A stretch of 9,312 nucleotides of DNA from JBHIBR01 sp046759145 [NCBI: Nitrospinota bacterium] (lineage in GTDB: Bacteria > UBA8248). The notes beneath the pieces were generated by a model. The model saw only the letters and a program-made list of their open reading frames with translations, had not been told where the DNA came from and made no database searches. How positions within the stretch are numbered: position 1 is the first letter of the stretch; every line of letters starts with the position of its first letter. The position numbers were made by a program, and so were the translations under genes. Below are positions 1,906 through 9,158 of the stretch, piece after piece. The stretch is from positions 1 to 9,312 of the forward strand of contig JBHIBR010000045.1 of the NCBI GenBank assembly GCA_046759145.1. The letters run 5' to 3'.

Positions 1906-1945
1906 AGGCTGCGAACATGGCGCGTAAGCTGGGGGGTTCGCCTTG

Positions 1946-2197
1946 ATGATCACGGACCGGATTGAAATCAACCCCAGGATGATGCTCGGGAAACCCGTCA
2001 TCCGGGGGACGCGCATCCCGGTGGAGCTTATCCTGCGCAAGCTCAGCGAAGGGGCCAGCGAGGCCGACCTGCTCGATGCCTACCCGCGCCTGACGCAGGA
2101 AGATATTCAGGCCGCCATCGGCTATGCGGCCGATATGGTGGCGCACGAGGAAACGGTCCTGGTGAAGCCGCCAGCCCGGAAACGTTCCAAGCGATGA
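1946..2197 (+). CDS. DUF433 family antitoxin-like protein
   Basis: This is an 83-residue protein. The start is taken as ATG 1946, with GCTGGGGGG about ten bases upstream; TTG 1943 would add one residue. It carries the DUF433 hallmark: IEINPRMMLGKPVIRGTRIP followed by a helix with LSEGASEADLLDAYPRLTQEDIQAAI. DUF433 proteins have a small winged or helix-turn-helix-like fold and are regularly encoded directly upstream of PIN-like DUF5615 proteins, so they are regarded as the antitoxin or DNA-binding partner. The C-terminus is basic (KPPARKRSKR). The next gene begins 3 bases after the stop, so the two are co-translated. G+C is visibly lower than in the flanking genes, which fits acquisition by transfer. 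Autoregulation of the pair is likely by analogy; no operator is evident. Confidence 0.85.
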   Translation: MITDRIEINPRMMLGKPVIRGTRIPVELILRKLSEGASEADLLDAYPRLTQEDIQAAIGYAADMVAHEETVLVKPPARKRSKR

Positions 2198-2200
2198 GCA

Positions 2201-2566
2201 ATGCGTTTCCTGGCGGATGAGAGCTGTGACTTCGCGGTAGTCCGGGCTCTGCGCGCCGATGGTCACGATGTGCTGGCCCTCGCAGAGATTTCCCCCCGGG
2301 CGGAAGACCAAGCAGTGATTGAACTCGCCGTTCGCGAGAGTCGCATCTTGCTCACCGAAGACAAAGACTTCGGTCAACTGGTCTATTCGAACCGACGGGC
2401 AAGAGGGGGCGTCCTCTTCCTCCGGTTTCCCGCGACGGCCCGGGAGGCTCTTCCCCGAACGGTGGTGGAACTCGTGAGACGACGGGGGGAGAGGCTCACC
2501 GATTCCTTCGTCGTGGTGGAGCCCGGCCGGATCCGGATCGGTCGGGCGCGTGAAGGTCAAGCCTGA
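2201..2566 (+). CDS. DUF5615 PIN-like toxin (putative RNase)
   Basis: This 121-residue protein starts at ATG 2201, three bases after the DUF433 stop. It shows the DUF5615 (Mut7-C/PIN-like) pattern in order: MRFLADESCD with acidic D6 and E7, then GHDVLALAEISPRAEDQAVI, then ILLTEDKDFGQL with D54 and D56, then GVLFLRF and a C-terminal helix-strand (TDSFVVVEPGRIRI). The acidic residues correspond to the metal-binding pocket of PIN-fold ribonucleases. With its upstream partner it forms a probable type II toxin-antitoxin module like VapBC; toxicity is inferred from family and context. No other gene lies between it and the duplicated dehydrogenase tail. All key acidic residues are present, so the toxin appears intact. 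Confidence 0.85.
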   Translation: MRFLADESCDFAVVRALRADGHDVLALAEISPRAEDQAVIELAVRESRILLTEDKDFGQLVYSNRRARGGVLFLRFPATAREALPRTVVELVRRRGERLTDSFVVVEPGRIRIGRAREGQA

Positions 2567-6617: not shown

Positions 6618-6652
6618 GCGGGAGGGAGAGCGCCCACTCCCAAGAGGCCGAG

Positions 6653-7165
6653 ATGTCCCCTCAGCTCTTCCTCCTGGAGACTCCCCTCGGGGTGGCCGCC
6701 CTCGCGGCGGATGGCGAGGCGATCCGCCGCATCTTCCTCCCCCAGCCCGACGCCCGCGCGGCCGAGACCACCGTCCGGGGAGCTTTCCCCGAGGGAGAAC
6801 TCCTCCCGAAGCCGCCGCCTGCGGGGCCCCTGGCGAGGGCAGCGGCCGAGCTCCAGGCCTATCTTCGGGGAGAAGCGAGGGAGCTCACCTTCCCGGTCAC
6901 CCTCGAGGGCCTCTCGGAGCACGCCCGCCGGGTGCTCGCCGCCATGCGCCGGATCCCCTACGGCGAGGTCCGCACCTACGCTTGGCTCGCCCGCGAGGCG
7001 TTCACCCACCCCCGCGCCGCCGCCGGGGCGTGCGCCCGAAACCCTTTCCCTCTCTACTTCCCCTGACACCGGGTGGTGGCCTCCGGCGGAGGCCTCGGGG
7101 GATTCGAGGGGGGGCTCACCCTCAAGCGGCGCCTCCTCGCCCTGGAGGGGGCGAAACTCGTCTGA
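6653..7165 (+). CDS. O6-alkylguanine-DNA alkyltransferase with selenocysteine at the active site (candidate)
   Basis: Read through the TGA at 7064-7066, the frame gives a 170-residue Ogt/MGMT protein, which removes alkyl groups from O6 of guanine by transfer to its own active-site residue. ATG 6653 has AGAGG 5 bases upstream. The DNA-binding region contains RRIPYGEVRTYAWLA, and R121 lies nine residues before the NP motif, where the family's arginine finger sits. Then comes RNPFPLYFP, TGA, HRVVASGGGLGGF and LLALEG. The TGA stands exactly where the family has the alkyl-accepting Cys (PCHRV). The His (H139) and Glu (E165) of the Cys-His-Glu set are intact, and all 32 codons after the TGA fit the family. 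A SECIS-like hairpin follows. If the TGA were a true stop, the protein would lack its whole active site. The alternative is a recent Cys-to-stop mutation. Family call is very secure; selenocysteine is likely. Confidence 0.85.
7064..7094 (+). promoter_or_regulatory. UGA plus SECIS-like hairpin in the alkyltransferase gene
   Basis: After UGA (7064-7066) and 11 bases comes GGCCTCCGGCGGAGGCC (7078-7094): a perfect 7-bp stem closed by a GGC loop. The loop begins 22 nt counting the U as 1, and its first two bases are G. This agrees with the known bacterial SECIS layout: a stem-loop inside the coding region just after UGA, with G in the apical loop as SelB contact. Confidence 0.7.
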
Positions 7166-7299
7166 ATCTACTTTGGGCGAACGAGAATTCTGCATTCTTT
7201 CCAAGAGAACCAGGGAGGCCAGTGCAAGTTGGTGGGCCGAGAATACGGTTACAATTGTTTGATTTTAAAGGGGTTTTTCCATGTGCGCGCAAAATTTCC

Positions 7300-7345
7300 T
7301 TGACATTTCCGTCTTGACATTTGTGTCAAAAGAACTGAATATTAT
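7300..7345 (+). promoter_or_regulatory. AT-rich promoter/operator-like region with repeated TTGACATTT
   Basis: TTGACATTT occurs twice in direct orientation 14 bp apart (7300-7308 and 7314-7322). The second is the left arm of an inverted repeat, TTGACA-TTTG-TGTCAA (7314-7329). TATTAT at 7340-7345 could be a -10, but the spacer to the second TTGACA is 20 bases, longer than ideal. The layout looks like a promoter with an overlapping operator ahead of the small gene at 7380. Confidence 0.4.
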
Positions 7346-7379
7346 TTGTAGGACACTAAATACGTAGGGACATAAGCCC

Positions 7380-7586
7380 ATGCAGGGGGGCAAAATGCGG
7401 GAGCGAGCACCCAAGAGAATTAGTCCGGAAGAGGCTGTCGCCGAGGGCGAAAAGGCTCTGGCGTTGGCCGCCTCTGAGGGGATGTCCAAGGAAGATAAAC
7501 TCGAATTGAGAGAGATTCTGCGAAGTAAAGGCGTACCGGAAAGCAGTCTCAAAAAGCTTTTCCCTGACCTAACGTACCCCGAGTAG
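7380..7586 (+). CDS. Small hypothetical protein
   Basis: This is a 68-residue protein of unknown family. It starts at ATG 7380, or more likely at ATG 7395 (63 residues), where AGGGGGG precedes by 4-5 bases. The sequence is charged and helical: RISPEEAVAEGEKALALAAS, then SKEDKLELREILRSKGVPES, then LKKLFPDL. There is no signal peptide or membrane segment. The composition is clearly lower in G+C than the flanking genes, which suggests acquisition. A promoter/operator-like region lies 35-80 bases upstream. The end faces a broken minus-strand gene with an 11-base gap. The opposite strand is also open here, but its product has a far less protein-like composition. Confidence 0.5.
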   Translation: MQGGKMRERAPKRISPEEAVAEGEKALALAASEGMSKEDKLELREILRSKGVPESSLKKLFPDLTYPE

Positions 7587-7597
7587 CAATCTAGGCG

Positions 7598-7843
7598 TTA
7601 GCCGTATTTCCCAATTCTCTTCGCCTGCCCCACAAAATCCTTCACCGACCATCCCATCGGTCCGGCGTATTTGCGTGCGACGGCGTAGAGCTGATCGTCG
7701 TCAAAGCACCGACTCGTAAGGAAGCGAATGATTTCGCGGTCGGAGAGCTTCCGCCCGCGGCCCTAGAACCCAGTCCGCGCGGCCTCGATAACTAATTCTG
7801 GCTCCGCAGAAAAGGCCCACCTGGTGAAGTCTTCGGGCCGCAT
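7598..7843 (-). pseudogene. Small unknown gene interrupted by an amber codon
   Basis: From ATG 7843, with GGGAGA 7-12 bases upstream, the minus strand reads MRPEDFTRWAFSAEPELVIE and on to AARTGF, then TAG (7765-7763). It continues in the same frame as GRGRKLSDREIIRFLTSRCF, DDDQLYAVARKYAGPMGW and SVKDFVGQAKRIGKYG to TAA at 7600-7598. Both halves look like genuine protein, so I read one gene of 81 codons with a nonsense mutation; TGG or CAG to TAG is a single step. I do not recognise the family. The interrupting codon is amber rather than UGA, so the selenocysteine explanation used for its neighbours does not apply. No second start with a good ribosome site is evident after the TAG. Confidence 0.5.
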
Positions 7844-7949
7844 GGGCGATTCTCCCAATGTGCGGGCGGAATCTCCAGGTGGAGCCATTACTGCCCCTAG
7901 ACACACCCATACGCCAGCGGTGGAGCCTAAGCTCAGCAACGATAGTACC

Positions 7950-8444
7950 ATGGCGCGTCTTGGCATCTTGCTGGCCTTCCTCCTCCTCTCCCCCCTCGCC
8001 TGCGGGCGGGGCGCCCTGGAGCTCTCCTCCCTGCGCAGCTCGGCCGGCCTGCCCATCCGCCACATCCAGGTGGACCCAGCCGCCGTCCGAAACCCCCAAC
8101 TGCTGCCCGGCCGATCCCAGCTCGTGGCCACGGTGTGCGCGCGCCTGCGCACCCTGGGGGGGGGCTTCTCGTGCGGCGCGTCGGGGGGGGCCGGCGGCGG
8201 GTGGGCCATCCTGCTCCTGGACGTGAGCGGCTACGAGAGCGAGGACTACCTCTCGCGTCCCCTCATCTGTGTGGCGGGGCGGCTCACCCTGTGGGATGGG
8301 ACCACGCGGGAGCTCCTCTGGAGCGGAGGCAAGGGGGTCGCCCCCTGGGGAGGGGTGTGCGCGCGGGAGGTTCGGCGGGTGGAGGAGGACCTGGGGGAGC
8401 GGGCCTGGGAGGAATTCTTGAGAACCGTCCTTCCAGCCCGTTAG
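7950..8444 (+). CDS. Exported protein, probable lipoprotein, function unknown
   Basis: This is a 164-residue protein. ATG 7950 is chosen because a signal peptide begins there (MARLGILLAFLLLSPLACGR); an upstream in-frame start would bury it. The signal ends in SPLAC with C18, an imperfect lipobox (the -3 position is Pro), so lipid attachment is plausible but unproven. The mature part has strand-rich stretches (GWAILLLDVSGYESEDY, RPLICVAGRLTLWDGTTREL), four further cysteines in C-containing motifs and a charged C-terminal helix (REVRRVEEDLGERAWEEFL). I recognise no family. No strong ribosome site is visible. It ends right at a strong terminator. A periplasmic or membrane-anchored location is expected. 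Confidence 0.65.
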   Translation: MARLGILLAFLLLSPLACGRGALELSSLRSSAGLPIRHIQVDPAAVRNPQLLPGRSQLVATVCARLRTLGGGFSCGASGGAGGGWAILLLDVSGYESEDYLSRPLICVAGRLTLWDGTTRELLWSGGKGVAPWGGVCAREVRRVEEDLGERAWEEFLRTVLPAR

Positions 8445-8498: not shown

Positions 8499-9158
8499 CT
8501 ATCGCGGCATGGCTGTCTGGGTCTGCCCCTCGCGGGCGGTGAGCTCCTCGAGCGCCCCGTCGATCCAGGAGGCCTCGGTCCAGGTGGACTTGTAGACAAC
8601 GGTGCCCCCCTTGTCCACCACGAAGACCATGTTGGGCATCCCCCCGTAGGCCTTCACCGTGGCCTCGTCGAGGCCGTCCACGGCCACGGGCACGCGCATC
8701 TGGGTGATCTCCACGAGCTCCCGCGCGTAGCTCATCTTCTGCTCGTAGCTCGTGTGCTGCTTGTACTTCTTAAAGCTCCGCTCCTCGGGGTGAGGCTCCT
8801 TGGAGTAGACGACGACGAACTGGACGTCCTTCCCTTCCCACTTCCTCGAGAGCTCGTCCATGGGGGCAACCTGCCTCCGGAAGGGAGGTCAGGTGACCGC
8901 CCCGAACTCGACCACCAGGTGTTTCTTGCCCCGGAAGTCGGAGGTACGGAAGCGGCTGCCGTCCGTGCGCTCGAGCTCGAAATCGGGGCAGGGCTCTCCG
9001 GGCCGGAGCTTCTCGATGAACTGCTTCTTACGGAGCGCCCGGAAGCCCGAGAGCTGGCGCTTGAGCATCTTCCAAGGGTCGATGTAGAGCAGGCTCCAGA
9101 ATCCGAACAATGGGCCCGGCGGCCGGTCCGGGTATTCCGCCCTCGGCAGCATCCTCAT
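8499..9158 (-). CDS. Deiodinase-like thioredoxin-fold selenoprotein (candidate)
   Basis: Read through TGA (8891-8889), the minus-strand frame gives 219 residues with selenocysteine at position 90. Start ATG 9158, or ATG 9152 which has better spacing from the AGGGAGGAGG ribosome site. Residues 14-37 are hydrophobic/aromatic without a clear signal peptide. A redoxin fold follows: LRPGEPCPDFELERTDG, RGKKHLVVEFGAVT, UGA, PPFRRQVAPMDELSRKW, VQFVVVYSKEPHPEE, and a cis-Pro-like GMPNMVFVVDKGG. FGxxTUPPF is the active-site signature of iodothyronine deiodinases and their bacterial DI-like relatives; the vYxxEpH stretch matches them too. Bacterial members are presumed thiol/peroxide redox enzymes rather than hormone deiodinases. 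A SECIS-like hairpin follows the UGA. The lone alternative, a stop mutation, would separate two well-conserved halves in the same frame. Downstream is a strong terminator. Confidence 0.88.
8862..8891 (-). promoter_or_regulatory. UGA plus SECIS-like hairpin in the deiodinase-like gene
   Basis: On the minus strand, GGAGGCA-GGT-TGCCCCC (8878-8862) forms a 4-bp stem, an A/C mismatch and 2 more pairs around a GGT loop. The loop starts 21 nt counting the U of UGA as 1, almost the same as in the alkyltransferase gene, and begins with GG. A competing hairpin (CCTCC-CTTCC-GGAGG) lies directly after UGA. Confidence 0.6.

What the first reader, a model, noticed from the sequence alone, without database searches (positions are those of the whole stretch)
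6653..7165. DNA repair alkyltransferase with UGA (selenocysteine) at the suicide active site
The alkyl-accepting cysteine codon of the PCHRV motif is TGA. The frame continues without damage for 32 codons to the family's normal end, with the arginine finger (R121), His (H139) and Glu (E165) all conserved, and a SECIS-like hairpin follows. Ogt/MGMT is consumed after one reaction, so spending a costly selenocysteine on a single-turnover protein is striking. A selenol would be ionised at neutral pH and more nucleophilic than the activated thiol. A selenoether product might even be reversible, which could allow turnover; that is speculation. Related cases may already be catalogued in selenoproteome surveys; I cannot check.
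Basis: partly seen in the sequence, partly recalled or inferred. Interest (0 to 1): 0.92.

Follow-up and report, generated by a model that had tools for sequence, protein, structure and literature searches.

The report
Selenocysteine-containing DNA alkyl-damage repair protein
This bacterial gene makes a well-known DNA repair protein in which the single-use reactive cysteine is replaced by the rare amino acid selenocysteine; the protein type was already listed in selenoprotein catalogues, but it turns up in many more bacterial groups here and no natural example seems to have been tested.

Summary
Window 6653-7165 (+) encodes an O6-alkylguanine-DNA alkyltransferase (MGMT/Ogt) whose nucleophile codon is TGA (7064-7066, residue 138, PUHRVV); the frame stays coding to its usual end. 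Selenocysteine is the best reading. A pattern scan of the genome collection found 106 loci, 104 of them MGMTs with TGA there, in at least eight phyla. In one order 40 of 87 MGMT matches contain TGA, none TAA or TAG. Of 57 genomes with a TGA form, 55 have SelB or tRNA-Sec. A bSECIS-like hairpin follows in 86 of 105 Sec genes against 13 of 67 Cys genes. A second UGA gene, deiodinase-like, lies in the window. Limits: the window's genome is not held, so its sel genes are untested; its hairpin alone is not significant; no reads. The kind is not new: Sec-MGMT is catalogued (PMC2398784, PMC9312934, PMC13188914) and an engineered human Sec-MGMT works (PMC4150793). Added here: breadth (but patchy), a Cys-form MGMT beside it in 13 of 15 related genomes, a close Sec/Cys pair, and a retained Asn. 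Turnover through a reversible selenoether has no support.

The parts
6653..7165 (+). MGMT/Ogt (O6-alkylguanine-DNA alkyltransferase) gene with in-frame UGA, 170 aa plus stop
   Evidence: AlphaFold2 model pLDDT 94.3, pTM 0.88 (C standing for Sec) matching solved MGMT structures
7064..7066 (+). TGA codon at the alkyl-acceptor position, read as selenocysteine 138
   Evidence: aligned with the active-site Cys of 1wrj and 4wxc
7078..7094 (+). bSECIS-like hairpin GGCCTCC-GGC-GGAGGCC, loop starts 18 nt after the UGA, G first in the loop
   Evidence: family-level support, not significant in the window alone
6642..6647 (+). Shine-Dalgarno-like AAGAGG five bases before the ATG
   Evidence: sequence
8499..9158 (-). 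deiodinase-like gene with in-frame UGA, a second predicted selenoprotein of the same genome
8889..8891 (-). TGA codon (residue 90, AVT-U-PPF) at the deiodinase active-site position

Best explanation
It is a natural selenoprotein form of the suicide DNA repair protein MGMT/Ogt. The ribosome reads UGA 7064-7066 as selenocysteine with SelB, tRNA-Sec and the hairpin just downstream (inferred from relatives; not shown for this genome). The folded protein binds DNA with its helix-turn-helix, R121 takes the place of the flipped base, and the selenolate of residue 138, in the pocket with N130, H139 and E165, takes the alkyl group from O6-alkylguanine in one step and stays alkylated (inferred from what is known of the MGMT family). 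Selenium makes the nucleophile ionised at neutral pH, so the likely gain is faster or less assisted transfer; this gain is inferred from the engineered human enzyme and not shown for any natural one.
For: MGMT homology through the UGA and a confident MGMT fold. Coding signal continues past the UGA and drops after the next stop. 106 loci with UGA in this motif in the genome collection, 104 of them MGMT on translation. UGA and never TAA/TAG in the 87 matches of one order; of the 40 UGA rows there I read 27, 26 have the UGA at the active site and one (L255) was not located. SelB over cut-off in 54 of 60 and tRNA-Sec over cut-off in 53 of 60 genomes searched; of the 57 with a UGA-MGMT 48 have both and 55 at least one. 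bSECIS-like hairpin in 86 of 105 Sec genes (window included) against 13 of 67 Cys genes and 1626 of 5250 synonymous recodings; stems of 6 or more pairs in 92 of 105 against 10 of 67; pairs changed on both sides in the window's register, n=23. Second UGA gene in the window, whose 38 best matches in 18 related genomes each contain TGA. An engineered Sec human MGMT protects E. coli from MNNG while the Ser form does not (PMC4150793, abstract and passages).
Against: The window's genome is not held, so its sel genes are untested; the reads cannot be inspected. The window hairpin alone is not significant, only 49 of 105 Sec genes individually fold better than nearly all their recodings, and the 45 nt after the deiodinase-like UGA fold worse than most shuffles (z +1.29). 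The window protein has a long branch in the tree (1.05, highest identity 54%), which could be relaxed constraint or merely poor sampling. SelB is common anyway in at least one phylum (134 of 199 Planctomycetota), and the tRNA-Sec model exceeds its cut-off in 5 of 14 control genomes. Two UGA-MGMT genomes, G003 and G231, show neither SelB nor tRNA-Sec over cut-off. In 59 genomes drawn across the phylum of G020 only the seed has a UGA-MGMT, so the form is patchy.
Confidence: 0.92

Rival explanations
1. A decaying pseudogene: UGA is a true stop and a 137-residue product without the nucleophile is made.
For: Long branch of the window protein in the tree.
Against: R121 and E165, which no search pattern demanded, and the helix after the UGA are kept; codon-position GC is unchanged after the UGA; 104 loci have UGA at this very codon, and stops in one order are UGA only.
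Confidence: 0.03
2. A sequencing or assembly error turned TGC or TGT into TGA.
For: Reads are not available to check.
Against: In the related phylum the best match of 15 of 18 genomes carries UGA at the same codon, and the window holds a second UGA gene of a known selenoprotein family.
Confidence: 0.02
3. UGA is read as a different amino acid (general recoding, such as Trp or Gly codes).
For: A stop read through in frame is compatible with recoding.
Against: In both genes the UGA sits at the reactive Cys/Sec position of the family, the MGMT gene itself ends in UGA, and SelB plus tRNA-Sec accompany the UGA form in 48 of 57 genomes.
Confidence: 0.01
4. A Sec protein, but one whose job has shifted from DNA repair to redox or alkyl-electrophile detoxification.
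For: Most selenoproteins of known function are oxidoreductases (PMC2398784, passages); 13 of 15 related genomes with the UGA form also hold an MGMT match without a stop, 12 of which were read and have PCHR.
Against: Arginine finger and Glu are kept and the model is an MGMT with its helix-turn-helix region; no second Cys is conserved for a redox cycle (next best column 4 of 40); in 5 of 7 Nitrospirota genomes with the UGA form it is the only PF01035 match.
Confidence: 0.05

Closest known systems
Methylated-DNA-protein-cysteine methyltransferase selenoprotein family (pfam01035) in selenoproteome catalogues: PMC2398784 (1 sequence in the GOS table), PMC9312934, PMC13188914 (example ABB14497.1, credited to Zhang and Gladyshev 2007, PMC1976440, not held)
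   Same: Same family and, by inference, the same Sec-for-Cys exchange; the reviews list it among predicted families.
   Different: The window gene is a divergent member (highest identity 54%), with enolase 70-71% identical to G001, G003 and G004 of a Tectomicrobia/Nitrospinota-like group and an 85% match to a 149-residue fragment in G002. The passages seen give no breadth, paralogue or hairpin data for this family.
Ordinary Cys MGMT/Ogt/Ada-C (human AGT, E. coli Ada 1sfe, Sulfurisphaera tokodaii 1wrj, M. tuberculosis Ogt 4wx9)
   Same: Fold, arginine finger, Asn, His and Glu.
   Different: Nucleophile is encoded by UGA (Sec) instead of TGC/TGT.
Engineered human AGT U145 (PMC4150793)
   Same: Sec at the same active-site position; shown to repair in E. 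coli.
   Different: Artificial UAG system. The engineered Sec enzyme tolerates loss of Asn137, whereas natural Sec forms keep it, including 7 genes that break my search pattern at other places (L118, L238, L240, L245, L246, L256, L257).
Deiodinase-like bacterial selenoproteins (PF00837)
   Same: The neighbour at 8499-9158 (-) matches this family, with UGA at the DIO3 active-site position.
   Different: Not part of the MGMT finding; an independent sign that this genome decodes UGA.

Membership tests
MGMT/Ogt alkyltransferase (PF01035, TIGR00589) | Match to the family profile over its cut-off | tested here: met
   88.9 bits against 27; 73.5 against 46.4; the N-terminal PF02870 domain is just under its cut-off (20.4 against 21)
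MGMT/Ogt alkyltransferase (PF01035, TIGR00589) | Reactive Cys in P-C-H-R-V | tested here: not met
   The codon is TGA, so it is filed as a Sec variant of the family, not as an ordinary member
MGMT/Ogt alkyltransferase (PF01035, TIGR00589) | Arginine finger, Asn, His and Glu of the active site | tested here: met
   R121, N130, H139, E165 present and invariant in 40 rows (Asn and His were demanded by the pattern that found 39 of them). Arginine-finger label recalled; Asn/His/Glu roles in PMC4150793
MGMT/Ogt alkyltransferase (PF01035, TIGR00589) | MGMT fold | tested here: met
   Model pLDDT 94.3; the 39 PDB matches with E <= 0.001 are MGMT entries or tags made from them
MGMT/Ogt alkyltransferase (PF01035, TIGR00589) | Removes O6-alkyl groups from DNA once per molecule | not testable with these tools
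   needs purified protein
Bacterial selenoprotein | In-frame UGA aligned with Cys of homologues | tested here: met
   Aligned with Cys of 1wrj and 4wxc; 90 homologous loci: 72 Cys, 18 stop (85 read by a script that accepted only Cys or stop)
Bacterial selenoprotein | bSECIS hairpin shortly after the UGA with G at the start of the loop (criteria recalled) | tested here: met
   Present in the window and in 86 of 105 Sec against 13 of 67 Cys genes; window alone not significant
Bacterial selenoprotein | selA, selB, selC and selD in the same genome | not testable with these tools
   No genome is held for the window; in other genomes only selB and selC were searched
Bacterial selenoprotein | Selenium in the native protein | not testable with these tools
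   needs mass spectrometry

The most novel reading that the evidence does not exclude
Selenocysteine MGMT is a widespread, functionally separate branch of alkylation repair: several lineages keep it beside a Cys-form Ada/Ogt, and the selenolate gives it kinetics or a substrate range that the thiol form lacks, possibly including slow regeneration from the selenoether. This would be Sec used as a one-shot nucleophile outside redox chemistry.
Probability: 0.2. Interest if true: 0.8.

Novelty: new member of a known kind. Interest (0 to 1): 0.45.

Why it matters
The family stands in the catalogues as a prediction, and the listings of the searches made here (held open-access library only) showed no experiment on a natural member. 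The 104 loci, a close Sec/Cys pair and genomes carrying both forms make the question directly testable. In practice such genes are cut short by any method that takes UGA as a stop, as the mechanical ORF list does here.

Tried and rejected
Rejected: pseudogene, sequencing error, general UGA recoding (see rivals). Not used as evidence: the open frame itself (other frames are open too) and the window hairpin taken alone. Rejected: a resolving Cys for a redox cycle; no column other than 138 has Cys in more than 4 of 40 rows. Tested idea: Sec frees the enzyme from the Asn that the human Cys enzyme needs (PMC4150793). The pattern-derived rows cannot test this, as the pattern demands Asn; of 27 UGA genes that I fetched, 19 are the same genes as pattern loci and one more fits the pattern. 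Seven genes that break the pattern elsewhere, six of these plus L118, all keep Asn; L255 was not located. So no relaxation is seen, on few independent genes. Led nowhere: Rfam scan of the window (0 matches), viral contigs (0 matches), exact taxonomy of the window. Scripts stopped with errors (38 after printing its first counts); the work was repeated.

Rows dropped: L038 and L074 (pattern hits that are not MGMT) from hairpin counts and tree; L015 (short upstream) from the tree; the first Cys control of 43 loci was widened to 67 because its filter was too strict, and five further Cys loci with PCHRA are in neither.

Full report
Observation. The window's + strand at 6653-7165 reads as a 170-residue MGMT/Ogt with TGA at 7064-7066. 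The mechanical ORF list stops the gene at residue 137. With the TGA read as a residue, the protein scores above the curated cut-offs of PF01035 and TIGR00589. Residue 138 aligns with the reactive Cys of solved MGMTs 1wrj and 4wxc. R121, N130, H139 and E165 are invariant in 40 aligned rows; Asn and His were demanded by the pattern that found 39 of these rows, R121 and E165 were not. An AlphaFold2 model has mean pLDDT 94.3 and pTM 0.88, and its 39 PDB matches with E <= 0.001 are MGMT entries or tags made from them.

Is it coding after the TGA? An open frame is weak evidence here, since the other two forward frames are open too. The codon-position GC pattern continues across the TGA (0.77/0.57/0.88 before, 0.84/0.50/0.91 after), while the 214 bases after the second stop have GC 0.42. 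K158, L161 and E165, invariant in the 40 rows, lie beyond the TGA.

Family evidence. A pattern for N-P-x5-P-TGA-H-R-V with a later G was run over the genome collection (84,980 species by the tool's description): 106 stretches matched, and on translation I judge 104 to be MGMTs, L038 and L074 being chance. The viral collection gave 0. Record titles and tree labels place the loci in Thermodesulfobacteriota, Nitrospirota, Nitrospinota, Tectomicrobia, Planctomycetota, Chloroflexota, Bacillota and Fusobacteriota at least. Eighteen rows with a short form, about 52 codons from an MKTF-type start to the UGA, form their own well-supported branch, mostly labelled Desulfobacterales or Deltaproteobacteria.

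Prevalence without the pattern. In the 18 genomes of the phylum that holds G001 (L006, Ca. Tectomicrobia), 17 match the window protein; in 15 the best match has one TGA, and 13 of these 15 also have a match without a stop, 12 of which were read and show PCHR (that of G027 was not fetched). In 61 Nitrospirota genomes 7 have a TGA MGMT, the only PF01035 match in 5 of them. In 59 genomes drawn across the phylum of G020 only the seed G020 has TGA, and one fragment has TAG: the form is patchy. In the order of G233, 85 genomes give 87 matches to the Sec profile: 40 rows contain TGA, 47 no stop, none TAA or TAG. I fetched and looked at 27 of the 40: 26 have the UGA at the active site, L255 was not located. 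In the three rows with two TGA (L213, L239, L240) the second follows the usual end of the protein and is taken as the natural stop. Nineteen of the 27 are the same genes as pattern loci.

Machinery. The window's own genome is not held. In 60 genomes (those of 50 of the 106 loci plus the rest of the G001 phylum), SelB is over its cut-off in 54 and tRNA-Sec over its cut-off in 53 (one of them, G016, only at 49 bits). 57 of the 60 have a UGA-MGMT; 48 of these have both SelB and tRNA-Sec, 55 at least one; G003 and G231 have neither. Controls: SelB rings over cut-off in 2 of 14 named genomes, tRNA-Sec in 5 of 14, so the latter is the weaker test. In 199 Planctomycetota SelB is over cut-off in 134, so SelB alone separates little there. 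SelA and SelD were not searched.

Hairpin. With fixed criteria (loop 3-8 nt starting 17-24 nt after the UGA, stem of 5 or more pairs, G among the first two loop bases; adapted from recall of the bSECIS model), 86 of 105 Sec genes (the window among them) and 13 of 67 Cys genes qualify; synonymous recodings of the Sec genes qualify in 1626 of 5250. Looser criteria gave 100 of 105. Taken one by one, 49 of 105 Sec and 7 of 43 Cys genes fold at least as well as all but 2 of 50 recodings. An unbroken stem of 6 or more pairs near that place is found in 92 of 105 Sec and 10 of 67 Cys genes; no single register serves more than 28% of the Sec genes; in the register used by the window (n=23) several pairs change on both sides and stay paired. 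The window by itself is not significant (528 of 1000 recodings qualify, 90 of 1000 fold as well; z -0.23 for 45 nt and -2.60 for the 17-nt stem).

Sec/Cys exchange. L183 (G329, Nitrospirota) is a Cys (TGT) form, identical at 116 of 145 residues to the Sec form L191 (the gene of L041), and still folds a qualifying hairpin after the codon, which looks like a recent Sec-to-Cys change with a relic bSECIS. L114 (G029) is a Cys form inside the Nitrospinota/Tectomicrobia Sec branch, in a genome that has SelB and tRNA-Sec. The tree (174 rows) needs 14 label changes against 53.4 in shuffles, but 69 of 170 inner branches are open, so one or several origins cannot be told apart. The window sits on a long branch without a supported place; its highest identity is 54%, to L006.

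A second selenoprotein gene in the window. 8499-9158 (-) is deiodinase-like with UGA at residue 90. The UGA aligns with the active-site position of a type III deiodinase (4tr3; recalled as the Sec position). In 18 related genomes the search gave 56 rows; the best 38 each contain one TGA (two of them also a TAA), in 17 of the 18 genomes; the 18 weaker rows have TAG, TAA or no stop, one TGA with TAA. I did not read where the TGA lies in those rows. The 45 nt after the window's UGA do not fold better than shuffles (z +1.29).

Comparison with what is known. The family Methylated-DNA-protein-cysteine methyltransferase, pfam01035, is listed as a selenoprotein family with one sequence in the GOS survey (PMC2398784, passages) and in two reviews (PMC13188914 and PMC9312934, passages). 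The 2026 review credits Zhang and Gladyshev 2007 (PMC1976440; not held; seen only in the reference list). Human AGT with Sec at position 145, made by an engineered UAG system, protects E. coli from MNNG, Ser145 does not, and N137A inactivates the Cys but not the Sec form (PMC4150793, abstract and passages). Seven natural Sec genes that break my pattern elsewhere still keep the Asn, so nature has not used that freedom in this small sample. The listings of five searches of the held library showed no experiment on a natural Sec-MGMT; subscription journals are mostly absent from it.

Mechanism. Shown: UGA at the nucleophile codon, conserved fold and pocket, family-level recoding signals. Inferred: Sec insertion here, single transfer of the alkyl group to selenium, and a speed or activation advantage. 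Unsupported: turnover by a reversible selenoether; no second Cys is conserved to help it. Verdict: a genuine, divergent member of a known but, as far as seen here, untested selenoprotein family. Confidence was lowered from 0.93 to 0.92 on checking, because Asn and His conservation proved partly built into the pattern.

Noticed in passing
window 8499-9158 (-): Deiodinase-like gene with in-frame UGA; related genomes give up to three such TGA-containing matches each.
   Followed up: partly
L183 (Cys) against L191/L041 (Sec): Close MGMTs (116 of 145 residues identical) with TGT against TGA at the active site and the hairpin kept in the Cys gene: a likely relic bSECIS after a Sec-to-Cys change.
   Followed up: partly
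L008, L017, L020, L024, L033 and similar loci: A short Sec-MGMT form (MKTFADKAYDLL...PEVPUHRVV) without room for the N-terminal domain; it resembles alkyltransferase-like or short archaeal forms (recalled).
   Followed up: no
window 1943-2566 (+): Adjacent DUF433 and DUF5615 genes, probably a toxin-antitoxin pair (role recalled).
   Followed up: no
window 7166-7379: Stretch of GC 0.42 after the MGMT gene in otherwise GC-rich DNA, followed by a 68-aa ORF (7380-7586) without a Pfam match.
   Followed up: no
window 7824-8444 (+): 206-aa ORF with no Pfam match next to the deiodinase-like gene.
   Followed up: no
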